A stretch of DNA of 64,000 bases from Paramacrobiotus metropolitanus (taxonomy: Eukaryota > Tardigrada > Eutardigrada > Parachela > Macrobiotidae). Positions within the stretch are counted from its first letter, which is position 1. Each line of letters opens with the position of its first letter. Location: contig NW_026570238.1 in NCBI RefSeq assembly GCF_019649055.1, positions 124,001-188,000 of the forward strand, given 5' to 3'. The translations under genes were made by a program, and so were the position numbers. Below are positions 35,332-58,624 of this stretch, in pieces. Under the pieces are notes generated by a model. The model ran no database searches and was not told where the DNA came from. It was given only the letters and a program-made list of their open reading frames with translations.

Positions 35332-35457
35332 TTAACGCTATTCGTGCTCGGAGGATGTCGGGGCAAGTACTCGAAAGCCGACGATGTCCGAACGGTCGCA
35401 ACTGAACGGTGCCGTTGGTCATCGGCTTCCGTTGAGACGAGCCGCGCCGAACACCCC
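35332..35457 (-). repeat. B2 split direct repeat
   Basis: Matches B1 (35733-35877) except for one substitution and 19 bases present only in B1 just after ATTCGTGCTCG. The 19 bases end in GCTCG, so the length difference looks like a deletion or gain between short direct repeats. This is the 3' terminus of the element in its sense direction. Confidence 0.9.
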
Positions 35458-35554
35458 TTTATTGAATTTGAACCACACCACAACTTCAGAACAAGACATA
35501 TGACACAGCAGAATATAGGAGTAAATCAACACGACTTCCGGGTGGGAGGGCGGG

Positions 35555-35734
35555 ATTTTGCAATTCGCAAGAACTCAAATTTAGGTGTACTTCTCTAATC
35601 GAACTGATCTTATTGCATTCATCTACGAACTTATTGTCAATTCTTATAGATCAATGATAAACGACACCACGTTGCTAGGGAAACAACTCGCCCGGCGTTA
35701 ACAGTATTTAACGTCGTAGACGTTAAATACCATT
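35555..35734 (-). repeat. A2 split direct repeat
   Basis: Copy of A1 (39644-39823), 180 bases with one substitution. Both contain a perfect hairpin of two 12-base arms around a GTA loop (35704-35730 here), arms GTATTTAACGTC and GACGTTAAATAC. The inner end overlaps the first bases of B1, giving the B1-A2 junction expected of this element class. Confidence 0.92.
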
Positions 35735-35877
35735 AACGCTATTCGTGCTCGTTTGATCATCTGCCGCTCGGAGGATGTCGGGGCAAGTACTCGAAAGCCG
35801 ACGATGTCCGAACGGTCGCAACTGAACGGCGCCGTTGGTCATCGGCTTCCGTTGAGACGAGCCGCGCCGAACACCCC
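35733..35877 (-). repeat. B1 split direct repeat
   Basis: Internal copy of the B repeat, directly after the recombinase frame in the element's sense direction. It is 19 bases longer than B2. The matching GGATGTCGGGGCAAGTACTC block is identical in the two copies. Confidence 0.9.
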
Positions 35878-39011: not shown

Positions 39012-39645
39012 CTCGGTTGCTCATCTTATCGCGAAAGCGCCGATCGTATTCCATCCAAATTGCCAACGGGCGTGACAGCGATAAACCGCGAATGATATCG
39101 GCATATGCGAATAAAGCAAGAGCCAGATCAGCATGAAAATATACACGAAAGCGAGCGAAAAGTAAAAAAGCGTCTAACCAGCTGTTGAAATTGTCAATTT
39201 TACGCCGAGTGGACGGGGCCGTAGTTGGTATCAACTTTCCATCGGTATCTGGGACGTACATGGTATTTTCAGGGACTGATTCGATTCCCCGGTTGATCGG
39301 TAACAACTTATGCAAATTCACGAAACCATGACGGTCAGATAAACACTTTAAAGTAGGATTATCCAAAGAAGGAAGACATAAATATGAGGGTGGTTTCAAA
39401 GACGTACTGAGTTCAGGAGTTGAAAGGTCAATCAGTACTGGGGAGCTGGATGAAGGTGAAGGACCATTGGAACGTGGTGGGACCGTCTGCTGAGTCACCA
39501 ATGCTGACATTTGTGTCTGAAGTTGAGACAGAGATTGCTGAAGAGACGCCAGGTCTGGTGAATCTTGCTCTTCCTTCTTCTTCTTGGTAACCCCTCGCCT
39601 AGGCTTCTGCTTCGGAACTACCGTAGCGGGTGGCTTCGGACCCAT
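38572..39645 (-). CDS. Gag-like nucleocapsid protein of the DIRS/Ngaro-type element
   Basis: This 357-residue frame begins with ATG at the exact edge of the A1 repeat (39643-39645). The N-terminus is basic (RRGVTKKKKEE), followed by a Gln/Leu-rich probable coiled coil and a central helical region. Near the C-terminus there is a zinc knuckle of the C-x2-C-x4-H-x4-C type (CYICRDPNHYATVC), and a second Cys/His cluster (CRDYNAGRCPNPC and HVCEQCFDPSH) typical of Gag proteins of tyrosine-recombinase elements. It should package the element RNA. Identity as Gag rests on position, zinc knuckle and composition rather than on full-length similarity. Confidence 0.85.
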   Translation of the reverse strand: MGPKPPATVVPKQKPRRGVTKKKKEEQDSPDLASLQQSLSQLQTQMSALVTQQTVPPRSNGPSPSSSSPVLIDLSTPELSTSLKPPSYLCLPSLDNPTLKCLSDRHGFVNLHKLLPINRGIESVPENTMYVPDTDGKLIPTTAPSTRRKIDNFNSWLDAFLLFARFRVYFHADLALALFAYADIIRGLSLSRPLAIWMEYDRRFRDKMSNRDVPDFCWFTEDSTVMAEVLRAIPLHSANPLFRYAVAPAYTSFGKPPFGCYICRDPNHYATVCPQRRHSAELPSASQRNAPAAPLPRDSAAPQRQNQPFRGPRVAVCRDYNAGRCPNPCPSRRLHVCEQCFDPSHIKSFHSIEPPPT

Positions 39646-39823
39646 TTTGCAATTCGCAAGAACTCAAATTTAGGTGTACTTCTCTAATCGAACTGATCTT
39701 ATTGCATTCATCTACGAACTTATTGTCAGTTCTTATAGATCAATGATAAACGACACCACGTTGCTAGGGAAACAACTCGCCCGGCGTTAACAGTATTTAA
39801 CGTCGTAGACGTTAAATACCATT
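39644..39823 (-). repeat. A1 split direct repeat
   Basis: This is the 5' terminus of the element in its sense direction. It is 180 bases long and differs from A2 at one position (GTCAGTTC here, GTCAATTC in A2). The hairpin lies at 39793-39819. Near identity of A1 and A2 implies recent integration, since both are copied from one template. Confidence 0.92.
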
Positions 39824-42704: not shown

Positions 42705-45700
42705 CTATTGCCCAACAGAAAATGTCCAATTTTTCACCGTCTCTAATCGCTGACGAAATACCTTAACGGCAAATTCATACAGCTGAACATCTAAGGCAAT
42801 ACGTTCCAAGAACAGCTCGCGCTGCTCCGGTGTCAGCGTAAAATTCTCTCCTCGCGCAAAGTAGGATCCATTCAACTTTTCCGCAAAATGCAACCCGAAT
42901 GTTTCTTCAAACAGGAACTGAGTTTCGTCAATCTGCTCCACAATACCAAAGAAAGCCATTTTAAGGAGATTGCTTTTGGCACTGGCCAAGATCATATCAT
43001 TCCGCTTTAAGTCGTTCAAGTAGTTTCTGTCGTAGCAACCAACCAATTCCAAGTCGGCCAACATGCGAGTCTGGCGATTTACGGCGAGATTATCCGGACA
43101 CTGAAGAAATTCGTCCAAAGTAACGCCCTCTATAGCAAAAAATGTATTTCAATAAGCACTGTTTGTGCAAAAACTGACATCTGTTTACCCCAAGTATCGC
43201 CTTCGAAACACGGATGGATTTCGTTACGAGAGGCGAATCGGCCACCACACCAGTGCCTGGAATTTTTCCACGTGGCCCCGCGTTGGACATGAAGAAATTC
43301 ACTAAGGTATCTTCGGTAAGGATTTCTCAGCAACGTCATATAAAAATATCTGCAAAAGATCAATTTATAAAAAAAATCAACAAATTTCGTGTTAAATATT
43401 AAGGGTAAACTGTATTTCAACAATTAAGGGAATATCTACAGAGCCTTACGGATATTTCAACATTTCGTCAGCAAAATACTCACGTCATGTGTTACTGACA
43501 ATAAAGCAAAGTGCTTTTTTGTTTCTCCTTAATAAAAATTACAAGACTGGTAAATATGATTATCTCTTCCCACTACCGACTGCTGACAAGCAGGTCGAAC
43601 ACAAAGCGCTTTTACAATAAATTAAAGGGCTCTTCAGCTTTAATTACGATTTATTGCAGCTCATCGTCAGATAATTATATATTATGACATGCACTACATG
43701 CTACCTATATTATAGGCTATATACTATGAGCTATGGCAGTGATACCACCGAAGCAGTCGGAAATATTTTTTCAGATGTGCTGTCCAGATTTTAGATACGT
43801 ACATAAACCGGCGCAATATTTCAACGGTTTGTAAATTAATAGGTGTACATAGTATACCGGGAAGGCGGGAACAATGAGGGAAGTGAATGAACTACCTGTA
43901 CGCAGTCATCTGGTACTGTAACAAACCACAATGCCCAAAACGCTACATGAGGTGTACTGATGGGCCGCTGGCTGGCTGCAGCTTAATCAATAACCTTGTT
44001 GTTAAAAACTTCTCGCGATGTTACTGAGAGAAAAGAAAAGACCACTAAAAGCAGCTACCGGTTATTGTAGGCAATCGACGAACGAAACACAAGAAAAAGT
44101 GAGAACTCGACCAATCTGGGTCATTTCCTCACTTGTCCCTGCTCTTAGCACCCGTGGATAAATCACTTTTCCATTTAATCAAAACCCCATCCGGCAGTGT
44201 GACGCAAAGCAGATTTCGCCAAACCGCCAACTGTTATAAATGTGTCATACATGGACAAAAAGAGATTACACAACGCCCATTATTCTTAATGACTTTGCCC
44301 AGTGCTTTTTCACTGAGCAATATTTCTCTCCTCTCTGCCATGATCGTCCAAATGTCAAAGAAAGACGAGGTAGATCAATTTAAGCATGCACAACCGAGTA
44401 AGAAAATGATTCCAGAGTGACCGATTACACTCCTCTCATTCCCAGTTGACAACGTCATCAAATATCCATGAAAGCGCAAAACAACTTCAGACTGGCCGCT
44501 TTACAACCCAACCAAATAGCTTTCCATCATATGGCGTAACGAGTTGCCAACGCTTCCCATGCCCAGAAAATGGTGAGAGGATACTACAAGATAACTGCCA
44601 ATCGATAACTCCACAAAGCTGAAGTGGAACTCCTACCCGATGCAACTTTCCCATTTCTGCCTAGGCAATCAATTTTTCCGCCACACAGATTACCAGCTTA
44701 ACTAGAAAATTCCTCATGCGATAAATGCATACAATTGCTTAGCTAATCAGACGTCAGGGGGCAATAGGAAAAAAACTGTATAATTCATCGAAAGCACGCG
44801 TAGCGAAACGTACAACAATACGAGTACCTGAAGAATGGTAGTTAACAGCACAACTGCGCCCTAACAATAAACATCAAGGCTAATTGAAAATTACCGTGCC
44901 CGCAACAAGAAAACTTTTAACGTTTTAAGGGATTTGGCCCGGTTCATAGTACCAAATTCGGGTATCCACATGGGAACTTTCGCTGTCGCGCACTCCTAAA
45001 CACTTTTTTGCATAGCTCTATGACATTTTGTAGCCAAAGGATTTGTATACGTAGGCGTGAAATCCGTTTGCGCGCGCAACATCCGGTTCGGGAGTTATTA
45101 GTGAAATAAAATTCCAAAAGTTTAAACGCGCGGAGGTGTACCAAAAGTCTCGTTATGAACCGATGCTATTCAAATTTTGCACGAAAACGCACATTACTAT
45201 GAAGATCGTTTTGGTACCGAACCAGCTTTCTACCATTTTTCTCAAATTTTAAATTAATTTTTAAAATTTTTGAATTTCATTTAAAATTTGAAAAAAATAG
45301 TAGAAAGCTGGTTCGGTACCAAAACGATCTTCATAGTAATGTGCGTTTTCGTGCAAAATTTGAAGAGCATCGGTTCATAATGAGACTTTGGTACACCTCC
45401 GCGCGTTTAAGCTTTAATTTTGTTTCACTAATAACTCCCGAACAATGTTACATGCACAGATTTTTTTGCCTATGTATACGAATCCTTTACAAAACATCAT
45501 AAAGCAATGCAAAAAAGTGTTTGAGAGTGCGCGGCAGCGAAAGTTGCCGTGGATGTATACAAATTTGATGCTATGTACCGGGCCAAATCCCTTAAGTAAG
45601 CACATTTTTCAGCTACTGCCTACTGGGCTTGATAACATGTTGATCCAATTCCAAAAATGTACGACCACGACCACATATACGAGATAATTCTCTTAATGGA

Positions 45701-47200
45701 TCGAAAACTGGAGCGCTAAACCAAAAAAGTACGGCCATAAACACCCCTCCCGAACTAACCATAAGAAAACATCTGGACATATGTTTACATAAAGATAAAA
45801 TAATTTCGACTGCCAGTTTTAGACCAATACAGGGGCTCTGCTGACCTAATTTTCACATGCTTAGTAATAAACGTTTTAGTATTACTTACCTTCGTTTTTC
45901 CGGAACGCCTTCAGCCTGATCCAAAACTTGATCTACGCAGCTGGTTAGCTCGGTCCAGTCAGCATGTAACCCACACTTCCATCCCGTAGAGAATCGGCTA
46001 AACAGCCATTCTTTCGATTTATTCGATGGTCGATAGCATTTGCATCTAAATACACAAAGGACCCGTATACGAGACATATTGAGTGGATGATGGTTAGGGG
46101 TAGTTAGGTCATAACCTTAATCGATGAAAATTATTTAATCCCTGCGCATAAATAACCACCAAACAGCTACTTAATGAATCGATTTTTAATGCTCAAAGCA
46201 ATAGGTATTGATAGCCAGCACGCAAATCAGCTATCAATCCGAATCATGCACAATCCTGCGCTCCCCACGGAATGAAACAGTATAATGAAATAATTAAAAC
46301 TGATTCATTACGTATGGTCCATAAGGTTCATTCATGCGATTCCACGCCATAGCTCTACCAATTCATTCAAAATTAATTAGTATTGTTAGATGTCAATTTT
46401 ATCATTGACGTGAAAAGAAAAGATACAGAAATCTTTGTAAATCACAAATTTATTATGAATTGGCTACGAAGTATTAAAAACCGCGAGAGCATTCGGTAGA
46501 ACGGATGCATTAACTACTAAGTGCAATGTAACCACTAATCGTCTATTCTACATCGTGTATAAACGCATAAACTTCGCTCCAAATTTTATTAAAGTCCATA
46601 TTGCCAGATCACCTAATTTTACGTCTTTTTTAAATGCTTCGGGTTTAAGCGAGTGTTCCCTTAATTTACAGTTTACGAAATTTTTATCTCAAAACTGTCA
46701 TATGGCATTTCAGTATTCGTAATAAAACTATCGAAATTATGAAAATTCAACACTCACCTTTTCGACCCTTCTCTACAGAAGCATGTTCGGTTACCGCTGC
46801 TGGGATCGATGAGATTCTTTACCATATTTTTCCCGAAGGCAGTACCACCCGTTTTCTGAATGTGCAAAAATACTAATACATCCGAGCTGTCGACGGAAAA
46901 CTCCGCATCCAGTTTCTTGAGAGTCCCGTTGGCGTGCCACAGGGAAATGCCGTTGTCACGATATCGGCCCATCACCGTTTTTCCCACCTTCCCCAGCCCT
47001 GCCTTTTGCGATCGCGCCACTTTTCCCAATTTCTCCTCGTCCAACCATGGCTTGCGGTTGCTGTCCAGGTAATCAGTCACCGTGTTTTCCCGGCAAAGCC
47101 ATTCCGGACAATAGGCTCCAAATAAGTGTACAAACTGTACACAGACTAGACAAACAATGCCCAACAATACAACACGTTTCCCCCACGACACCATCCGCAT
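42705..47200 (-). CDS. HS6ST: Heparan-sulfate 6-O-sulfotransferase
   Basis: The enzyme transfers sulfate from PAPS to the 6-O position of glucosamine in heparan sulfate in the Golgi, tuning FGF and Wnt signalling. Exons 46758-47200, 45890-46045, 43189-43349 and 42705-43129 give 394 residues with consistent phase. It is a type II membrane protein: MRMVSWGKR then a hydrophobic anchor (VVLLGIVCLVCVQFVHLFG, about 10-28). The PAPS 5'-phosphosulfate loop is FLHIQKTGGTAFG (about 111-123). Conserved blocks follow: WLFSRFSTGWKCGLHADWTE, the 3'-phosphate region YMTLLRNPYRRYLSEFLHVQ plus RGATWK, CFEGDTW and RQTRMLADLELVGCY. N-glycosylation sequons include NGT near 91. The start is the first ATG in frame; the frame is open a further 58 codons upstream without ATG. 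Intron 2 (43350-45889) contains a foldback transposon. Vertebrates have three paralogues; here one is seen. Confidence 0.96.
44929..45591. mobile_element. TTAA-flanked foldback element, copy 1 (in HS6ST intron 2)
   Basis: A 663-base element starts GGGATTTGGCCCGG and ends with the reverse complement, with TTAA immediately outside both ends (44925-44928 and 45592-45595). It folds back over almost its whole length; the innermost arms 45172-45233 and 45300-45361 are perfectly complementary for 62 bases around an AT-rich centre. It has no coding capacity. TTAA target sites are characteristic of piggyBac-type transposases, so a non-autonomous element mobilised by such an enzyme is the best guess. 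A second copy lies at 57938-58620. Confidence 0.88.
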
Positions 47201-47520
47201 CGGCTTATCCGGAAATTCGCCATAAAATTGTGTCAACAGAGCATGTTTCCGGCATGGGACGATGTAATGCCACCGGGTTGTGCTTAAACAAATTTCCCCA
47301 CTAACTACAGCACAACACTCGCCAGCCGCAGCGGCTTTGTCGATCGAAGAAATCCCGAATTTCCTTCGGGCCAAATCCTTTCAGATCCGATTAAGTCCCA
47401 TAGAAAATAAGAGCCCAATCCCTTGTAATCAGCTAAAGCTGCGTAAATATTCGGTAAACGACATCGGTAATGGACGACGGTTCATACAACTTCATGCACA
47501 CATGCGCACAGACATCCACG
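47201..47520 (-). other. HS6ST 5' region, abutting the displaced RALGAPB block
   Basis: Up to 47374 the sequence stays in frame with HS6ST but has no ATG, so it is taken as 5' untranslated. From 47521 the sequence belongs to the RALGAPB duplication. The join near 47520 is probably artificial, so the true HS6ST promoter may not be what lies here. Confidence 0.45.
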
Positions 47521-49660
47521 AAAATCATGTACCGGATAACTAACTATCTATACGAGTACTAATTAATTGTAAGAGAAGACTATTCCATGATTACATTACA
47601 ACAGGAAACACATTAAATTGGGAAAATGTAAGGGTCACAGAGCGCATACGGTATTTTGTAATTTGAAATTCGCTCGTTCTTTCAATTTTACCTTTATTTC
47701 TACTATATTAAGTAAGAGTTGCAGCAAGTTACGCAATCTAGATCAGCAGAACCTTTCGGCACACTTAAATCTAATAACATCTGATAAGATCACAATACCT
47801 TCGGGAACTGACTTAGGAACAGCTTTGGACTTCGCCGGCTTCCGATCAAATAATTCTTTCATTTTAACAGGCCATGCCATTGAGAGTAGAAATTTCCGAT
47901 ATTCTTCGCTGCAATTCTCCACCGCATCCTAATGAAAAAGATCATTGTCTGCACGATTATTATGGTATAACTCTATGTCTATCCTATAATATTGATGTCA
48001 ACTACCTTAACTGCAACAATCAACAACTGCATGCTTCTATGACACGAGATAAATCGTATGTTTGGTAGAGGTCAACAGTCCATAATACATACCTGCAGTA
48101 TACCTGAATTTCATTTTGAATTCAAATAAATGCATGACGAGTCGTTATGGTACTTACAAGTTAATGTTCACAAAAGCACCTACGTAAAGGTGACAGCACT
48201 TACACCACTCTGAACAATTTCGTCGACAGTATTCCTCCCTTTCCTTATACAGAATGTCAACATCCAATCCAAAGGACGAAAGGATACTCGATCCAAATTC
48301 ACCATGGCTTCTTTCAGTGCAGGATTAGTATGGTCCAGCTCAACCGTGTAGGGTGTGCGGTACAGCGATCGGGACTCGATTAAAGGCGGTTTCAGTCCCA
48401 TATGATACAGGAACTGTGAAACAATTACAGCTTCCGCATCGCTACAAGAAAGACCCCAATTCGAAATATTTTAGCATGACAGGAAGGTCTGAACGTTAAG
48501 GAACTGTGCCAACCTGGAAGCATGATGGTCCATATGGATGGACGGGGGTTTGTACGGTGCATAAGAGCTGGGCTCTGGCAAGGAAAACACTACTTCGCGA
48601 TCCACCTGTTCGAACACTTCGCTAAACATGGCTAGTTCCTTTTCCAGTGTTTCGTTATTTTTGCACAAATCAGCAAAAGTCGGCAGCATGTCGTCTCTAG
48701 CAAAGTAACAAATCCCTGTAAGCTTTTCTGCATACGCAATGGCAAATGAGTTCTTCTGTTATTCTCTTTGCGAGTATAGTTTGCGCAAAGGTACAGTAAA
48801 TGACTACTTCTGTTATTATGTTTTGGCCAACTTATAAGTCAGTATAAGATAATATAATGACAGATGCATAAAATCCGGGACCTGCGTACGACAGCGTACC
48901 GACACTGTCTTATATTATTCTTCTTACGCCTTGCATTTTTCGATTTTGCTGTATCCTGGCACTTCATTTCTAAAAGCCACAAAATCCCAATCGGATTCCC
49001 TTCCCAACCGGATATCCTGCTGGTCATGATGTTGCTCTGCCACTGCGCACTCAGGTTTCTCTTCCACAGTTTCCGCCTTCTTCTTCGTACCACTGACCGT
49101 TGCCACTGGTTGGAAAACGAACGCGCGCCGACATGTCAAAGAACGCTGTACGACATGCACCGGCCCACCGGATCCCGGGCCGCAGTGAATGGCCATAATG
49201 GATGTTCCATCGATCGTAAAGTACAGGAAGCGGTCTAACGGGCTCGTAACGAGATCTTCTTCAGTTACAACGTTGTCCGCAAACTGGAAACATCCCGGAT
49301 CGTTGTTGGAACCAATTAATTCCAACAGTACCAGCAATACTAATTCAGCCGCGTCACGAACACGCGTGGAAATCAACTGGAAAGAGTGCTGCAACGACAA
49401 AAGCAGGTATTTAGGATTAAGCAATGGTACAGATAATCCAACACTAAGAACGCAAATAGACGAATTAGCAAATTAAGCAATGCGGAAAACAATCATGACA
49501 ATTGCAGATCACAGAAAACTACTTACCGTAGGCGTACACATTTTATTTACCTGCGTGGTTTTTGGCACTCTTTCGGCATTAGGTTTGTTTCCGGTTAGGC
49601 CAATCTCCACTACCTCGGTCACCGTGCTCAAAACCTCCTGATCTTGCATCAACACCGGTT
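47521..49660 (-). repeat. Intact copy of the duplicated RALGAPB block
   Basis: These 2140 bases are collinear with 51742-53587 (1846 bases). The two copies start at the same AAAATCATGTACCGGATAAC and end at CATCAACACCGGTT. This copy keeps good reading frames and splice sites; the other has lost about 294 bases through many small gaps with few substitutions. Confidence 0.9.
47799..49388 (-). CDS. RALGAPB: RALGAPB middle to RapGAP-domain exons (intact but displaced)
   Basis: Four minus-strand exons continue the protein begun at 57671: 48928-49388, 48514-48696, 48204-48441 and 47799-47928. Phases join, with the exon ending at 53454 fitting the one starting at 49388. Recognisable segments: STRVRDAAELVLLVLLELIG (compare VKDAAEATL in human), the charged stretch LEKELAMFSEVFEQVDRE, VNLDRVSFRPLDWMLTFCIR plus KGRNTVDEIVQSG, which corresponds to the start of the RapGAP domain, and EEYRKFLLSMAW. 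The remaining C-terminal exons are not found below 47799; they lie instead at 50364-51323. The block therefore appears out of order in this sequence. The identity is good; the placement is doubtful. Confidence 0.8.
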
Positions 49661-51738
49661 AAAAGACCAAGATACTAACTTATAAGAATAAAATATTTTA
49701 TATGCAATATAATACTCGTATTATTAGAGGCTTGGGCAGAAAACACCATAACCATACCGTAGCCATCACTATCGTTGTAGTGGGCCGCCAGAGGTGATTA
49801 CAAAATGCTCAACAGGCCATAGCTGACTCTGGGTCCCTTTAGATTTAGCCTCGCACTGCGTGAAACGATCTCTTTCAAAAATAACATTTACAAAAGTTTT
49901 CTCTATTCAGTGTATATCTGGTTAAATTGCTGTTGAGGAGCTTAAAGTATCACCATAGCCGTTTATGGTATTCACATACCAACGTCCATAACCATATATA
50001 TGGTTAAGTGTTGGCTATAGTTTTAAATGAGCGTGACAGTATCAGTATTTTAAATTATACGTAATGACGCGCTATACGGTAGTTAAGATTTGCCATATTT
50101 TATTTAAACTTCTTTTAAGAACACCAGAATTTTAGATTTTTACATTACAATAAAATTCGACACGCCTACACAGACTCCAGAAGCGGAAAAGGCAAACTTT
50201 ATCTTTTAGGTGTTCTTCTATACAAGTACTCGTACCGTTTAATAACTCGATGAAACAAGCCAACCACCCAGAAGCAGAGACAGTCAGTATATTAGGTTCT
50301 TGCAAATCTTTAAAAAAAAATCCAGGAAAGTAATACACGAAACAAAATTTCTTAACACTTATTTTAATTGTACATTTGCAACGAGCTTCGGTGATTCTTT
50401 TCCGGACTATTCGTTATCTCTTGAATAACGTTTCTCCGCCGTATAATGCCAGGTGTGTAATTCTCTAGCGAGAGGCGCTTCCGACTGAACATATTGGCGA
50501 CGCAATCACGTATCAATCCGCCTAATGCCGCGTGCGACACAATCATGCCGTTTACCAACGGTATAAACGCCAAAATGCTGTAAGAGAAATCGTTTATTAG
50601 CACCGTACCAAGTACACAGGTAATAACGGTAAAGTAAACTTGTCAGCACCGTAATTTAACCATTATTTCTTCATCTACTGAAGGCCCCGTTCTAACAAAA
50701 TTGATTAACCACACAACTAAAAAAGCTGCTTGTGTTTATATAAAACTCCTTCGAAACATTTAAAAAGGAGAATCGCTCGACGTAGGGGACCAATTTTCCT
50801 GGCTAATAACCAATCCTGCTAAGTGACCCTGACCACAGGGCACAAACATAGTGACAGACGCATCTTCCAACTGGTTTACGAAAATAATTACACCGATAGT
50901 AAATTTTTTTTATACAATCTTGTGGTGGCTGAAAATCGAACTTCCAGGTATATACAAATAAAATCTATCATGCGTAGCTTACAATCCATATTTCAGCGTT
51001 TCATACATTCGAGCAGCGGAAACAAATCGTCATAAAGTTGATGGCGTCTGCTCATCGCTCCAGACTGCATTGCAGTGTAAATCAAATTTTAAATTCATCG
51101 ATAACAACGAAAACAGCACTACTGCTACGCTTGCTGACAACGCCCGCATAAAAAACTAACTGTTGTGATTTTATGTTTTACATAGCTTCCAGGGCCGACT
51201 GAACTGGCTGTTAAACATAATAATATGGAGCATGACATACGTGCGGGAAATACGAAGTCGTTTTTATCGTCCGAACATTCCATCCAGACCACGGCACAAA
51301 GTGTTTCGACCGAAGTGCGAATTCTGGCTTGGGAGGAACGCAGCCAGGACAGCGGATTGGATCGTGATGCGAAGATCCGAAGGTTATAAGCCGAACATTT
51401 ACTTTTATGTCGTTATGCAAGCTACGAGTAATAACCCGGCCCAGAATCTACAAAAGGAACCAAATTCAACCAAGACTCTCCTCCGAATGGTAGTACCGTC
51501 AAAAAAAATTACCCGACCAATTTTAACTGATATAAGAATGAACATACAAGATTTTTGGCACAAAAAAAATCATACTCTAAACTTTTAATCACATCCTCAC
51601 TGCGTTAATTACTCATCTCTGGCCGCCTTGATTAGATTTTAAACACCGTAAAGACGGCAACAATCCATAGCGACATCGACCAGCAAGCACCATCCCCATC
51701 ATGGAAATCCTAAAAATAACGATGGACTGGACAGACGT
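49661..51738 (-). other. Blended segment: weak copy of 53588-55615 that also holds RALGAPB 3' exons
   Basis: Over about 2 kb this segment shows collinear but patchy similarity to 53588-55615. Clear anchors are 51378-51407 against 55264-55293 (29 of 30 bases) and 50048-50068 against 54003-54023, with an interrupted match to the end. Yet it also contains well-formed C-terminal RALGAPB exons that have no counterpart in 53588-55615. The mixture looks like a consensus of two unrelated sequences forced into one alignment. Alternatives are an old partial duplication or a decayed copy. Confidence 0.55.
50364..51323 (-). CDS. RALGAPB: RALGAPB C-terminal exons (end of the RapGAP domain)
   Basis: The terminal exon 50364-50577 encodes FIPLVNGMIVSHAALGGLIR and then RKRLSLENYTPGIIRRRN, which matches the C-terminus of human RALGAPB (NMVIPLVDGMIVSRRALG and SPPHVRRK) and stops at TAA (50364-50366). 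A preceding exon at about 51241-51323 encodes RTSVETLCAVVWMECSDD, matching the RVSVVWVERYDDIENF strand of the RapGAP domain. A weaker exon may lie near 50770-50870 (VTMFVPCGQGHLAGLV). The exons that should link these to 47799 are missing or unreadable. On the minus strand these exons lie downstream of the degraded copy, which is the order expected if that copy marks the true position of the block. Confidence 0.75.
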
Positions 51739-51741
51739 GTG

Positions 51742-53587
51742 AAAATCATGTACCGGATAACTAACTATCTATACGAGTACTAATTAATTGAGAAGACTAT
51801 TCCAATTACATTAAACAGGAAACACATTAAATTGGGAAATGTTAAACCATGTTTCTGAATTTGAAATTGCTCGTTCTTTCAATTTTACCTTTATTTCTAC
51901 TATATAAGTAAGAGTTGCAGCAAGTACGCAACTAGATCAGCAGAACCTTTCGGCACACTAAATCTAATAACATCTGATAAGATCACAATACCTTCGGGAA
52001 CTGACTTAGGAACAGCTTTGGACTTCGCCGGCTTCCGATCAATAATTCTTTCATTTTAACAGGCCATGCCATTGGATAAAATCCGATCTTCGCTCATTTC
52101 CACCGCATCCTAATGGAATTTCCACGATTTTATGGTATACTCTTTCTTCCTATAATATGATGCAAACCTTAACGCAACAATCAACAACTGCATGCTTCAT
52201 GACACGGATAAATCGTATGTTTGGTAGAGGTCAAATCCAAAATACATACCTGCAGTATACCTGAATTTCTTTTGATTCAAATAAATGCATACAGGATGTA
52301 CACAAGTTAATGTTCACAAGCCCTACGAAGGTGACAGCTTCACCACTCTGAACATTTCTCGACATATTCCTCCTTTCCTTATATGAATGTCAACATCCAA
52401 CCAAGCGAAAGGATACTCGATCCAAATTCACATGGCTCTTTCAGTGCAGGATTAGTATGGTCCAGCTCAACTGTTGTGCGGTAAGCGATCGGGATCGAAG
52501 GCGGTTCAGTCCCATATGATACAGGAACTGAAACAATTACAGCTTCCGCATCGCTACAAGAAAGACCAATTCGAAATATTTAGATGACGGAAGGTCAACG
52601 GAATGTGCCAAGAGCATGATGGTCATAGGATGGAGGGGTTTGTACGGTGCATAAGGTGCTCTGAAGAAAACACTACTTGCGATCCACCTGTTCGAACTTC
52701 GTAACATGGCTAGTTCCTTCCAGTGTTTCGTTTTTCCAAATCAGAAAACGGCACTGTGTCTAAAGAAAAATCCGTAAGCTTTTCCATACGCAATGGCAAA
52801 TATTCTTCTTTATTCTCTGCAGTATAGTTTGCGCAAAGGTACAGTAAATGACTACTTCTGTTATTATGTTTTGGCCAACTTATAAGTCAGTATAAAAATA
52901 TAATACAGATGCATAAAATCCGGGACGCGTACACAGCTACCGACACTTCTATATTATTCTTCTTACGCCTTGCATTTTTCGATTTTGCTGTATCCTGGCA
53001 CTTCATTTCTAAAAGCCACAAAATCCCATCAGTTCCCTTCCCAACCGGATATCCTGCTGGTCATGATGTTGCTCTGCCACTGCGCACTCAGGTTTCTCTT
53101 CCTTTCCGCCTTCTTCTTCGACCACTGCCGTCCACTGTTGGAAAACGAACGCGCGCCGACATGTCAAAGAACGCTTCACATGCACCGGCCCAATCCCGAG
53201 TGAATGCATAGGACACGATCTAAAGTACAGAAGCGGTCCCGGATCGTTGTTGGAACCAATTTCCAACAGTACCAGCAATTGTAAAGCCGCGTCACAACAC
53301 GCGTGGAAATCACTGGAAAGAGTACTGCAACGAAAAAGCCGGTATTTAGGATTAAGGAATGGTGGAAATCCAACAACGAAAACGCAAGACGATTAGCAAT
53401 TAAGCAATGCGGAAAACAATCATGACAATTGCAATAGACAGAAAACTACTTACCGTAGGCGTACACATTTTATTTACTACGTAGTTTTTGGCACCTCTTT
53501 CGGCATTAGGTTTGTTTCCGGTTAGGCCAATCTCCACTACCTCGGTCACCGTGCTCAAAACCTCCTGATCTTGCATCAACACCGGTT
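51742..53587 (-). pseudogene. Deletion-riddled second copy of the RALGAPB block
   Basis: Collinear with 47521-49660 but 294 bases shorter. Long identical runs (for example around CGATTTTGCTGTATCCTGGC and GTTGCTCTGCCACTGCGCAC) are separated by gaps of one to a few bases, so every exon is frameshifted. Few differences are substitutions. A drifting pseudogene would collect substitutions as well as gaps; a pattern dominated by deletions is typical of uncorrected long-read sequence. It sits at the position where the intact exons belong in the gene order. Confidence 0.8.
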
Positions 53588-56500
53588 GAATATGCATCCA
53601 AGCCACCAAGCATTGATAAGCTAAAACGATTTTATTATGCAGATCTTTGGAGTGATTTCGCGACGGACGTTGTGCCTGGTCACGAATATATTGGCATAAA
53701 CTTAGAACCACCATTTTTATAGTGGGCTGCGAGAGCAGATTATAGGACGGATGGCCATAGCGGGACGATGTATGCAGGAATTCCAAGCAAGCGTACGACA
53801 AATTGTTGTCTTGCTGCCACGCAGGATTCTGCAAGAAGTGCGTGATGGCAGTGTATACCTTGTGTCCAAAATTGCTGTTGATTTCTGTAATTATTCAGTA
53901 GCCGTATTAATATATTTCTACATAAGCAACAGTCCAGAAAACAAAAATAAAAAAAGTGTTCACTACTGACATCATCACACATGTCCGCGACAGTGCCAGT
54001 AGTTTTAAATTATACGTAGTGACAGCGGATATTAAAAAGATTTGCCATGTGATTATGAAACGTTGCACAGAACAGCTAGAATGAGATATTCCTTACCCGG
54101 AGCTTCTTCCACACTGAAGTGGGTAAAAGACTGCGTAAATAAAACATACAGACTCCCTGCAACCAAGAAATAGTTATTTGTTTGCTCCAAGAGTCGAACC
54201 AGCACTTTCTCTTACCCAGAAGCAGCATACAGTTTGCCGGGTTAGTTTCTTTGAAAATACTTTGCAAAAGTAAATCCAGGAGGCGGTAAGACAACGAACC
54301 AAAAGTATCGCTGTCAGGTCGTGCAGGGTACATTTCCAATGCAGCGCGAATATCTGGAAACCAGGACTGTTCACACTCTGGGATTAAATTGTGCTGTTTT
54401 TTTGTGCAAAAGATAATTAACCTTGACAAGCCAAGAGATCAAAGTATTTTGGCAAACAAACAACCGATGACAATATATGTAATGCCGCGGATCGAAGATC
54501 TTCTGGACTAATTTCCGGGTACAATCTACAATCACATGTTTGATAAAAGATGCACAGCCAAATTAGTATTGCAGATGCGAGCTCACTGTGATTTTTCCAG
54601 TTTTTGCAACAAGACTACTTCCAGCGCAGGAACAAGCACTGGCAAAAGCGATTCCATACCAACAAAATTAGCCCGGAAGATATCATGACAATTTCGAATT
54701 GCACTGGACATTACAAATCCACTTGAATCCTGTGTAAAAATAATTTAGAGAAACAACATTATCTGGAAGATCCCCGTCTAATTCAATATTACAAAAATCC
54801 ATGGTGTACCTCTGAATGTAATGCCTCAGCCAACACCAGTCCCATGCGCGCTAACAACCCCTGATGCAGCGTTTCGCCATTCGCCAAAAAGGAATACAAC
54901 CGACATAAAGTTCCAATGGCTTCGGCTCGACCTGCATCAAGACACATACAGTAATAAGAGGCACATATTTTAAAGGTCACCGCTGTGCATGAAAATGATC
55001 AAAGTACAAAACCTGGCTGCCAAATAGCGCTCTCGGCAGTCATCTGGAATATAATGTCCAGTGGATCTTTGTGCTCCAATGAGTCATCTTTTTGCTTGGA
55101 ATGTTTTGCACCTAACAGGAACAAAAAAGTTATGCAAATTTCAAGAATCACATTCAAAACAAACATTACGCACAAAAACGGCACAAACAGTTACGACCGT
55201 GTGCGAATACTGCCTGCAGTAACAAAATTCAGGAAATTGAAATTCTCGTCGATGTAAAAATATCGAAGGTTATAAGCGGAACATTTACTTTTAGGTCGGC
55301 CAACCACGCTTGCTTGAAATAACCACGGCCCAAAAAGATACAGGAGTCCTTTACACGGCAACCGATTTTCACACCGAAAAGGCCGACCTTTACGTTGAAG
55401 CATTAGAGATTCCTTGACAGTTGCTGAATGAGTCTGGTAAGCAGTACTAATATCCTGTGCGTTCGTGCTCATCTCTGGCCATGAGATATCCAAGTATGCG
55501 TCCATACTGGCCAACATATCCATAGCGAGATCGACCATCACCGTGATCCCCGTCATGGCCTTCAGAAAAATTAACGGCGCACTGGACGGTGGTCGGGGAG
55601 ATAAACTGGACAGAGTTGCTCCCGAATCGAATGTGTTAATCGAGATCTGCAAATTTTTAAATTTTATAAAAATCTGACAAATGTTAAACCATGTTTCCTA
55701 GAACTAACGATGTTGTTACGGCTTTCTAAACTCCTTTTACATCTAAAAAACACTACCGCTAAAGCAGGCAACGACAAAATACTACTAACTTTTTACGTTA
55801 GTACTAACTGGCTACTACTCCAGTCGCACTTACCATATGCATAAGTTTCTCTGGCGGCCTTTTCCCGCTTTCGTTATTCGCGACTTCGGCCACATTTCCC
55901 AAAAGTAGGAAGAATCGGATAAAAATCTGCATCAATAAATCATTTCCACAAATTCCTGGGGGAATTTCCATATTTTTCCAGTCCTGATACGATTTCGTTG
56001 GATCGGGTGATGCAAACATGATCGAATTTTTTCCGCCTTTTCCGTTCATTTCATGGATCAACTTTTCAAAAAGCAGAGTTGAAATCTGAAAAATGCAGTG
56101 CATAGAAATGGTCGCTTTCATAACCATACGCATACAGGATCGTTCACTAACACCGTGGATAAGCCTTACCCGAAGCCATTCTTCAACCACAGGCAATCTA
56201 TGCCTCCACATACGACACATGTGGAAAAATGTTTTCCAGTAAACCACAGCGGGAAAGCTTTTTTGGCACGCCAGCAGCCACACATCAAACAGAACAGCAA
56301 GAAGGCGTTTAGAGATCTGTTGAGCAAAATCTTCGGGATCGGAAGGCGGACTCAGTACGGTATCAGAAACTGATAGGAGCATCTGCAGAAGGACTTCCCA
56401 TGTTTCAGTTTCTAAAATAGTAGATGAGCGAAAGACATCCGGAATAGTGCGAAGAGCCCGATGACAGAGCATCAGCTGCTTTGAAATCTGCTCTTGGTGC

Positions 56501-57671
56501 TTTGAATTTTGGTCTTGCTTTGAAGTATGTTCCTGTGGCTTAGTAACTTGCTCCCGTTCCTTGGACGTTTGTTCCGGAGCTGAAAACAAACTGTGTAATA
56601 AAGAAAAATCCGTAACCGGAACCATGTGCGGAAATACAAATATGCTTAATTGTCTCTACACAAAGAGAACATAAGAACTTGTTGAAATCACGAAAAAAGG
56701 AATAAAACAACTTCTAAAAATTTTGAAAAATATTTACAAACGAAAATACTAACGAGTACACAACTATAAACAATTCCTAGCCTGCGTGCATATAGATAGA
56801 AAGTGTACCAATACACACCTGGCTTTTCCCTTGGAACAAACAAACTGGATAAATTCTTGATAATTCTTTGTGCGTACAGGTTTGGGTTTTGCAATATACA
56901 TTCCGGAACGGATGGCTTTGGTGATGGCGAGAGTGCAGTCAACCAGTCGCAAAAAATAAATGTTGCATCTCGGATAATTTCATGTTCACTGAAATCCAGA
57001 GTTAGTGCATAGCACACGATCTAGGGAAAAGACTTCGATCACAAAATGCATAAGTGACAAATTTCACGATACGATTTTAAAGTACATAACAAACGAGTGA
57101 AGTACACAAAAAAGATACAACAAAACGAAAAATCCGTAGTTATGGCCTCATGGGATTGGTGAGCAAATCCGTGAAGTAAAAGCTCAGCATTAATATCAAC
57201 GTGTGAGAAGTCACGTCAGGTCCAATAAATAATAACTGTCCCGTTGTCCGACAGGTGAACAGCCAGCAGAAAGACTACCAGTAGATTTGTACGCACCTCA
57301 ATTGCATATTGGATGAATTCTTCCGATCCCAACGGCATCCCGTGAGTGCCTCCTTGAAAGAATCCCGTTTGCGCTCTCCCGCTGTCCAGGTTAACGGATA
57401 CACTCTGCACGGAGCTGTTACTTAATCGCATCTGCAACTCAGTCCGGGCATTGCCTGTCCCAGATGTTAACAAAGGCGACATTGCGGGAGACAGTGCGGG
57501 ACTGGGAAGGGGATGGCTGGCTGGCGCAGCTGCTGGTCGATCCGCCAAGTTCTTGCAGACACTGCGACACATTTCCACCAGCACTTCCCGTGGCAGTGAC
57601 TGGAAGGGGCTACGCATAGCCACATCATCGTCGCAAAAAGTCGACGACAGCGATATCCATTCGGGGAACAT
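53454..57671 (-). CDS. RALGAPB: Ral GTPase-activating protein subunit beta, N-terminal two thirds
   Basis: RALGAPB is the obligate partner of the catalytic alpha subunit in the RalGAP complex, which turns off RalA/RalB. Twelve exons read on the minus strand: 57297-57671, 56819-57020, 56170-56579, 55834-56085, 55289-55646, 55013-55111, 54810-54931, 54587-54729, 54422-54525, 54216-54377, 54097-54156 and 53454-53884; they total 906 codons with matching phases. The start MFPEWISLSSTFCDD parallels human MYSEWRSLHLVIQND. Other matches: FVPREKPG, ETWEVLLQMLL, LLAVLFDVWLLACQKSFPAV followed by YWKTFFHMCRMWRHRLPVVEEW, LFGPWLFQASVVG, GRAEAIGTLCRLY, and YQCLVAWMHIQPVL..VVEIGLTGNK. The segment is an all-helical scaffold without catalytic residues. 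Exon 3 has a repetitive Gln/Lys/Ser insert (SKQDQNSKHQEQISKQ). The protein must continue into exons now found at 47799-49388 and 50364-51323. Confidence 0.9.
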
Positions 57672-57937
57672 GCTAGAGCATAAGCAACCCGCTGATACGG
57701 CACAACAAACAAAACAACTTTCGTATTCGTGTGTCACACACGGTGTGTGATTTATAAGTTGTCTGTCACGAAATAACTCCAACGATCAAATTAAAAACTT
57801 GCAACGTTTCATAGTTCTGAGCTATCCAAGTTCCACTGATTGTAGTTCTCCAGATTTGGCTGATATTGCCTACATGTGACGAAGTCTAGTCAAAGGTATC
57901 CGGCTAACTCCCCATAAATCGGGAAATTTGAATTTAA
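57672..57937 (-). other. RALGAPB promoter and 5' untranslated region
   Basis: The 266 bases between the RALGAPB start codon and the foldback element have no other gene. The reading frame is open for about 37 codons above the chosen ATG, but the conserved protein start (MFPEW) supports the ATG at 57671. A transposon so close to the start may limit or supply promoter sequence. Confidence 0.4.
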
Positions 57938-58620
57938 GGGATTTGGCCCGGTACATAGCGCTAAAATCGTGTACATTGACGGGAATATTCGCTTTCGCGC
58001 ACTTTCAAATACTTTTTTGGGTTGCTTTTTGACATTGTGTAGCCAAATGATTGGTGTACATAGGCGTGAACTCCGTTTTCGCGCGCAACATCCGGTTGCG
58101 GAGGTATGAGAGTAACAAAATTCCGAAAAGTTTAAATGCATTCAGGTGTACCAAAAGTCTCGTTATGGACCGATCCTTTTCGAATTTTGCACGTAAATGC
58201 ACATGACCATGAAGATCGTTTTGAGACGGATCCACTGTTCTAGCATGTTTTTCAAATTTTAAAATGAATTTCAAAAACTTTAAAATTCATTTTAAAATTT
58301 GAAAAAAATCGTAGAAGTCTAGATCCGGGTCAAAACGATCTTCATGGTTACGTGCATTTACGCGCAAAATTTGAAAGGGATCGGTCCATAATGAGACTTT
58401 TAGTACACCTGAATGCATTTAAACTTTTTGGAATTTTGATACCCTCATAACTTCGCAACCGGATGTTGCGCGCGCAAACGGTTTCCTCACCTACTCGTAG
58501 GTATACAATTCTTCTGTACAAAATACCATAAAGCAATGCAAAAAAGTGTTTGGGAGCGCGCAACAGCGAAAGTTCCCCTGGATGTGCACGAACTTGGTGC
58601 TATGTACCGGGCCAAATCCC
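57938..58620. mobile_element. TTAA-flanked foldback element, copy 2 (upstream of RALGAPB)
   Basis: A 683-base relative of the element at 44929-45591. It has the same termini (GGGATTTGGCCCGGTACATA at the left and its reverse complement at the right), TTAA on both outer sides (57934-57937 and 58621-58624) and the same internal order of segments (TCGCGCACT, CGCGCGCAACATCCGG, AAAAGTCTCGTTATG). Its arms are less perfectly complementary than in copy 1, so it has drifted more. No coding capacity. Confidence 0.88.
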
Positions 58621-58624
58621 TTAA

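What the first reader, a model, noticed from the sequence alone, without database searches (positions are those of the whole stretch)
47521..55615. RALGAPB locus contains an intact block and a deletion-riddled copy of it, with gene order scrambled
Seen: 47521-49660 and 51742-53587 are the same sequence, but the second lacks about 294 of 2140 bases in many tiny gaps with few substitutions. Exon order on the minus strand is N-terminus (57671-53454), degraded block (53587-51742), C-terminal exons (51323-50364), and then the intact block (49660-47521). Phases join 53454 directly to 49388. Inference: the true order is probably C-terminal exons, block, N-terminal exons. The degraded copy would be long-read gap fill at the right place and the intact copy a mis-scaffolded contig. 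If it is real DNA, it would be a tandem duplication with an unusual deletion-only decay.
Basis: partly seen in the sequence, partly recalled or inferred. Interest (0 to 1): 0.75.

Follow-up and report, generated by a model that had tools for sequence, protein, structure and literature searches.

The report
Assembly error inside a RALGAPB gene
A 2.1-kb piece of a conserved gene appears twice most likely because the genome was put together wrongly: once as good sequence in the wrong slot, once as error-ridden long-read filler in the right slot, so it is probably neither a real duplication nor a decaying gene.

Summary
Block A (47520-49660, 2141 bp) recurs in direct orientation as B (51741-53587, 1847 bp). 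B differs by 152 deletion events (305 bases), 9-10 insertion events and 7 mismatches. The block is found at only these two places in the 169.8-Mb assembly.

The best explanation is an assembly artefact. (1) Matches to human RALGAPB (PDB 9qwp_B) are colinear only if the block lies between the N- and C-terminal exons, which is B's slot; A lies beyond the C-terminus and starts in mid-exon. (2) B's deletions ignore reading frame and exon borders. (3) A simulated consensus keeping only bases on which two noisy long reads agree comes near B's profile; one raw read does not. (4) New here: an unduplicated tract beside A, 49720-50034, is damaged the same way. Its copy of a dispersed ~400-bp repeat has 39 deletion events, against 0-5 in each of 15 copies fetched from elsewhere. 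So the deletions go with the sequence source, not the duplication.

Inferred history: contigs Y (A) and X (C-terminal exons) were swapped, then gaps were closed with sparse long reads. No reads were available.

The parts
47520..49660 (-). Block A, the intact copy: end of one exon (49660-49527) plus four further exons (49388-48928, 48696-48514, 48441-48204, 47928-47796; last donor chosen by eye) of RALGAPB; probably a misplaced short contig
   Evidence: joined exons open (382 codons, 0 stops); matches human RALGAPB residues 883-1238, E 1.1e-10
51741..53587 (-). Block B, the deletion-riddled copy in the slot that the protein order requires; probably low-depth long-read consensus (gap fill)
   Evidence: 152 deletion events, 10 insertion events, 7 mismatches against A; stops in four of five exons read in A's frame; simulation
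49720..50034 (+). Second damaged tract, not duplicated: a copy of a dispersed ~400-bp repeat lacking 68 of 380 consensus positions in 39 events
   Evidence: shorter than in 21 of 21 full-length rows; 15 other copies: 0-5 deletion events each
50364..51323 (-). C-terminal RALGAPB exons (region X), lying between the two copies
53454..57671 (-). N-terminal RALGAPB exons (region Z); the last exon runs across the 53587/53588 join into B
51741..51790. Clean left end of B (50 identical bases, 49 in the alignment), possibly an overlap of contig X with contig Y
53495..53587 (.). Clean right end of B (93 identical bases), possibly an overlap of contig Z with contig Y

Best explanation
This is an assembly artefact at a RALGAPB gene that appears single-copy in this genome. 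The true order on the + strand is W (the neighbouring gene at 46754-47380 and beyond), X (C-terminal exons), Y (the block), Z (N-terminal exons). In the scaffold the small contigs Y and X were swapped, giving W-Y-X-Z (inferred). The gap between X and Z was then closed with a consensus of very few error-prone long reads in which a base survived only where reads agreed. That gives many small deletions with almost no insertions or substitutions: copy B (error type shown; origin inferred). The interval between Y and X received the same kind of filler, seen at 49720-50034 (damage shown; origin inferred). Copy A is the accurate contig in the wrong slot (inferred).
For: Two places only in the genome. 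RALGAPB_N has one strong match in the genome (106.2 bits); the other, on C20, is weaker (26.3 bits, 48.1 with its neighbours). Human RALGAPB coordinates run 162-274 and 804-917 (Z and the join), 883-1238 (block), 1374-1392 (weak) and 1450-1504 (X), so the block belongs where B is. A starts in mid-exon at 49660 with an in-frame stop just upstream, while the Z exon runs on into B. 68 of 74 exonic deletion events in B are not multiples of three; density is 6.4 per 100 exonic and 7.9 per 100 non-exonic bases. Deletions show no consistent trend with homopolymer length. A two-read agreement consensus of simulated CLR-like reads gives 4-6 mismatches, 180-214 deletion events, 315-387 deleted bases and 8-17 insertion events, against 7, 152, 305 and 10 observed; 3-of-4 agreement gives 4-5, 92-104, 126-154 and 11-16, so B lies between the two; a single raw CLR-like read gives 17-30, 49-68, 52-74 and 155-202. 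The unduplicated repeat copy beside A has 39 deletion events against 0-5 in each of 15 others. B's clean runs are longer than random placement gives (five of at least 50 against 1.6 expected, P 0.012), as varying depth or contig overlap would produce.
Against: No reads, no second assembly and no record of the assembly method were available. The 244 kb of C18 examined holds no N, so the supposed old gap borders are not marked. No other deletion-only pair was seen in the 314 kb examined on four contigs, so the artefact is not shown to recur as a duplication. A motif scan of 44-60 kb and a genome search with a remembered 100-residue human piece (best E 3.68) found no counterpart for the human stretch after residue 1238, so the Y-X join may lack an exon, or this lineage may have lost or changed it. 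The error rates and consensus rules were my assumptions. Which of the two swapped pieces moved cannot be told.
Confidence: 0.93

Rival explanations
1. The 2.14-kb block is truly duplicated (W-A-X-B-Z, both copies intact in the animal), and B only looks damaged because short reads from both copies were drawn to A when the consensus was polished.
For: Sharp edges and clean ends of B (49 and 93 bases), where reads would be anchored by the flanks, are also expected here. Nothing in the sequence alone forbids a recent duplication.
Against: It does not explain the unduplicated damaged tract at 49720-50034.
Confidence: 0.05
2. Real tandem duplication followed by biological deletion-only decay of the copy that lies in the gene.
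For: A deletion bias is known, and is strong in Drosophila (passages of PMC8662616 and PMC4161770).
Against: About 22 deletion events per mismatch and at least 15 per insertion event. In 20 of 20 other self-match rows on the contig, gap openings do not exceed mismatches. It would leave the only strong RALGAPB_N gene broken, and the same decay would be needed in a neighbouring, unrelated repeat copy.
Confidence: 0.01
3. B is a processed or diverged pseudogene copy, or a diverged allele.
For: Six of the 7 mismatches lie in 49320-49619, which could be allelic.
Against: B keeps the introns and lies in the gene's own slot, and an allele would not carry 152 frame-blind deletions.
Confidence: 0.01

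Closest known systems
Long-read gap filling of short-read scaffolds (PBJelly, LR_Gapcloser, TGS-Gapcloser) with inaccurate inserted sequence
   Same: Filler of about 88% identity (BLAST pieces 87.9% and 88.5%) joined to accurate sequence. Passages of PMC8848313 give mean identities of inserted sequence of 88.61-95.17% for PBJelly and about 87.7% for LR_gapcloser with simulated reads of Drosophila, Arabidopsis and hummingbird.
   Different: The tool and platform used for this assembly are unknown. The deletion-only profile is approached by my own simulation; I did not see it described in the passages.
False duplications in genome assemblies
   Same: One locus shown twice close together, giving a false copy or a broken gene (PMC9516828; listing and start of abstract only).
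   Different: That abstract concerns vertebrate assemblies and haplotypes; here the second copy looks like filler plus a misplaced contig (inference).
RALGAPB, beta subunit of the Ral GTPase-activating protein (PDB 9qwp_B)
   Same: RALGAPB_N domain and colinear stretches.
   Different: No counterpart found for the human stretch between residues 1238 and 1374.

Membership tests
Assembly artefact: low-depth long-read filler | Indel-dominated differences, few substitutions, blind to reading frame | tested here: met
   152 deletion events, 10 insertion events, 7 mismatches; 68 of 74 exonic events off frame
Assembly artefact: low-depth long-read filler | Profile approached by a consensus of few noisy reads | tested here: met
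   18 settings with 4 replicates each: two-read CLR-like agreement is near; an ONT-like 3-of-4 consensus (2 mismatches, 183 deletion events, 267 bases, 1 insertion event) is also near, so the platform is not settled; error rates assumed
Assembly artefact: low-depth long-read filler | Same damage in neighbouring unduplicated sequence | tested here: met
   49720-50034: 39 deletion events against 0-5 in each of 15 copies; the consensus was made from those 15, which favours them
Assembly artefact: low-depth long-read filler | Raw reads disagree with the assembled sequence | not testable with these tools
   no reads available
Real tandem duplication with decay | Substitutions accumulate along with indels, and gaps fall in both copies | tested here: not met
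   A/B 7 mismatches, gaps 152 against 9; other pairs of the contig behave otherwise
RALGAPB orthologue | RALGAPB N-terminal domain PF20412 above cut-off | tested here: met
   104.1 bits against cut-off 27
RALGAPB orthologue | Middle and C-terminal parts colinear with human RALGAPB | tested here: met
   the 1374-1392 match is weak
RALGAPB orthologue | Rap_GAP-type domain (PF02145) in the C-terminal part | tested here: inconclusive
   no Rap_GAP match in the two joined-exon peptides and none on C18 in the genome search; whether human RALGAPB itself scores was not tested

The most novel reading that the evidence does not exclude
The block really is duplicated in this animal and A is a genuine second copy downstream of RALGAPB, while only B's deletions are consensus error. 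The animal would then carry a recent partial RALGAPB duplication.
Probability: 0.05. Interest if true: 0.2.

Novelty: not a real feature. Interest (0 to 1): 0.08.

Why it matters
Taken at face value, the locus suggests a broken RALGAPB, a partial gene duplication and an odd deletion-only mutation process; the evidence here favours none of them. The practical value is a signature: many small frame-blind deletions with hardly any insertions or substitutions, especially when a dispersed repeat in the same tract shows it too, flags low-depth filler without access to reads.

Tried and rejected
Homopolymer-driven error as main cause: rejected. The deleted fraction is 15.5% of bases in runs of 1, 12.3% of 2, 14.9% of 3, 8.3% of 4 and 24% of 5 (6 of 25 bases).

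A single raw read as source of B: rejected, too many insertions in the simulation.

Continuation of homology beyond the ends: the left flanks show none (179, 417 and 405 of 500 shuffles score as high at 45, 80 and 150 bases). The right flanks show a borderline similarity (1, 2 and 2 of 500). It could mean that A's right end was extended a little into Z, but the shuffle was crude and I do not rely on it.

Other damaged tracts: 244 kb of C18, 30 kb of C20, 20 kb of C34 and 20 kb of C15 were compared with themselves, contig by contig; A/B is the only deletion-only pair. Filler without a duplicate cannot be seen this way.

The near-identical repeats at 35346-35877 and 39644-39823 looked like further false joins but belong to a dispersed family.

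A human-like 'YYAD' exon between block and X: not found. Pfam on 10 exon reading frames gave one match above cut-off, RALGAPB_N; two joined peptides gave none. The first PDB search with one exon of A gave nothing.

Species and assembly method were not identified; the paper searches gave no lead to this genome. Passages of PMC7757076 and PMC6324547 were seen but are not used as evidence.

Full report
WHAT IS THERE. The block at 47520-49660 (A, 2141 bp) recurs in direct orientation at 51741-53587 (B, 1847 bp). B lacks bases in 152 events (305 bases; 98 events of one base, 33 of two, the largest 59) and has 10 insertion events and 7 mismatches (9 insertion events with free ends). BLAST scoring gives 4 and 16 mismatches in its two pieces, the second running 46 bases beyond the block. 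A search of the 169.8-Mb, 533-contig assembly lists the block at these two places only. Homology stops sharply at both ends. The outermost 49 and 93 bases of B are identical to A.

WHAT GENE IT IS. An exon in 55804-56655 (minus strand) carries the RALGAPB N-terminal domain (PF20412, 104.1 bits, cut-off 27). In the whole genome this domain has one strong match, here, and one weaker match on contig C20 (26.3 bits, 48.1 with its neighbours). PDB entry 9qwp holds RALGAPB (chain B). Against it, window pieces match at residues 162-274 (exon in 55804-56655, E 2.7e-27), 804-917 (exon ending at 53454, read through the join into B, E 9.9e-17), 883-1238 (exons of A, E 1.1e-10), 1374-1392 (weak, -1.1 bits) and 1450-1504 (X, whole-sequence E 3.5e-9). 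The gene order must therefore be N-terminal exons, block, C-terminal exons. That is the slot B occupies. A lies beyond the C-terminus. On the other side of A is an unrelated reading frame (46754-47380) with only a sub-threshold sulfotransferase match (E 0.11).

STATE OF THE TWO COPIES. A's exon remainder and four further exons join to 382 codons without a stop (borders chosen by eye so that splice phases agree). A begins in mid-exon at 49660, with an in-frame stop just upstream. In B, read in A's frame, four of five exons contain stops. 68 of 74 exonic deletion events are not multiples of three. Event density is 6.4 per 100 exonic and 7.9 per 100 non-exonic bases. Nothing suggests selection.

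WHAT KIND OF DAMAGE. Deletions show no consistent trend with homopolymer length. I simulated noisy reads of A with error rates that I assumed and built consensuses, four replicates for each of 18 settings. With two CLR-like reads that must agree, the means are 4-6 mismatches, 180-214 deletion events, 315-387 deleted bases and 8-17 insertion events; with 3 of 4 reads agreeing they are 4-5, 92-104, 126-154 and 11-16. B has 7, 152, 305 and 10. One raw CLR-like read gives 155-202 insertion events and 49-68 deletion events, unlike B. An ONT-like 3-of-4 consensus gives 2, 183, 267 and 1, also near, so I do not name the platform. Clean stretches in B are longer than random placement gives (longest 93, P 0.026; five of at least 50, P 0.012), which fits varying read depth or contig overlaps. 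For comparison, the other 20 self-match rows on C18 all have no more gap openings than mismatches. Nine of them, realigned with the scoring used for A/B, have 1-130 mismatches; two have no gaps, and in seven the gap events are split between the copies (for example 52 and 58), where A/B has 152 and 9.

A SECOND DAMAGED TRACT. Region X searched against the genome matches a dispersed repeat at 49719-50022, but in 21 of 21 full-length rows (of 34 rows) the genomic span is 1.20-1.22 times the window's. I fetched 15 of those copies. Against their consensus the window's copy (49720-50034) has 39 deletion events (68 bases), 2 insertion events and 13 mismatches over 380 positions. The 15 others have 0-5 deletion events and 0-35 mismatches each; the consensus was made from them, which favours them. 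This tract is not part of the duplicated block, so the deletions belong to the sequence source in this interval and not to a decaying duplicate.

MOST LIKELY HISTORY (inferred). Contigs W, X, Y and Z belong in the order W-X-Y-Z on the + strand. X and Y are about 2 kb each and were swapped. Long reads of low local depth then closed X-Z, producing B, and filled the interval between Y and X. Passages of PMC8848313 report that sequence inserted by PBJelly and LR_gapcloser averaged 88.61-95.17% and about 87.7% identity to truth with simulated reads of three genomes, so such filler is ordinary. The 244 kb of C18 that I examined contains no N, so the borders are no longer marked. The assembly method is unknown to me.

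WHAT REMAINS OPEN. I could not inspect reads or transcripts. A true duplication whose second copy was badly polished is not excluded, but it does not explain the tract at 49720-50034. For the human stretch between residues 1238 and 1374 I found no counterpart with a motif scan of 44-60 kb and a genome search with a remembered piece. X 51274-51446 also resembles 55162-55335, in region Z, at roughly 70% by eye, which I did not explain.

VERDICT.

Noticed in passing
49720-50034: Copy of a dispersed ~400-bp repeat lacking 68 bases in 39 small deletions, while 15 other copies are nearly full length: a second filler-like tract outside the duplicated block.
   Followed up: yes
51274-51446 and 55162-55335: About 175 bp shared at roughly 70% identity between region X (over its first exon) and a stretch of region Z; origin unexplained.
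   Followed up: partly
44924-45595 and 57933-58624: Palindromic (foldback) repeats flanking the locus, 79% alike, from a large dispersed family.
   Followed up: partly
35346-35877 and 39644-39823: Near-identical short direct repeats (99%) belonging to a dispersed family with many partial matches in the genome.
   Followed up: partly
RALGAPB locus, between block and X: No counterpart found for the human RALGAPB stretch between residues 1238 and 1374; lost, too diverged, or missing from the assembly.
   Followed up: partly
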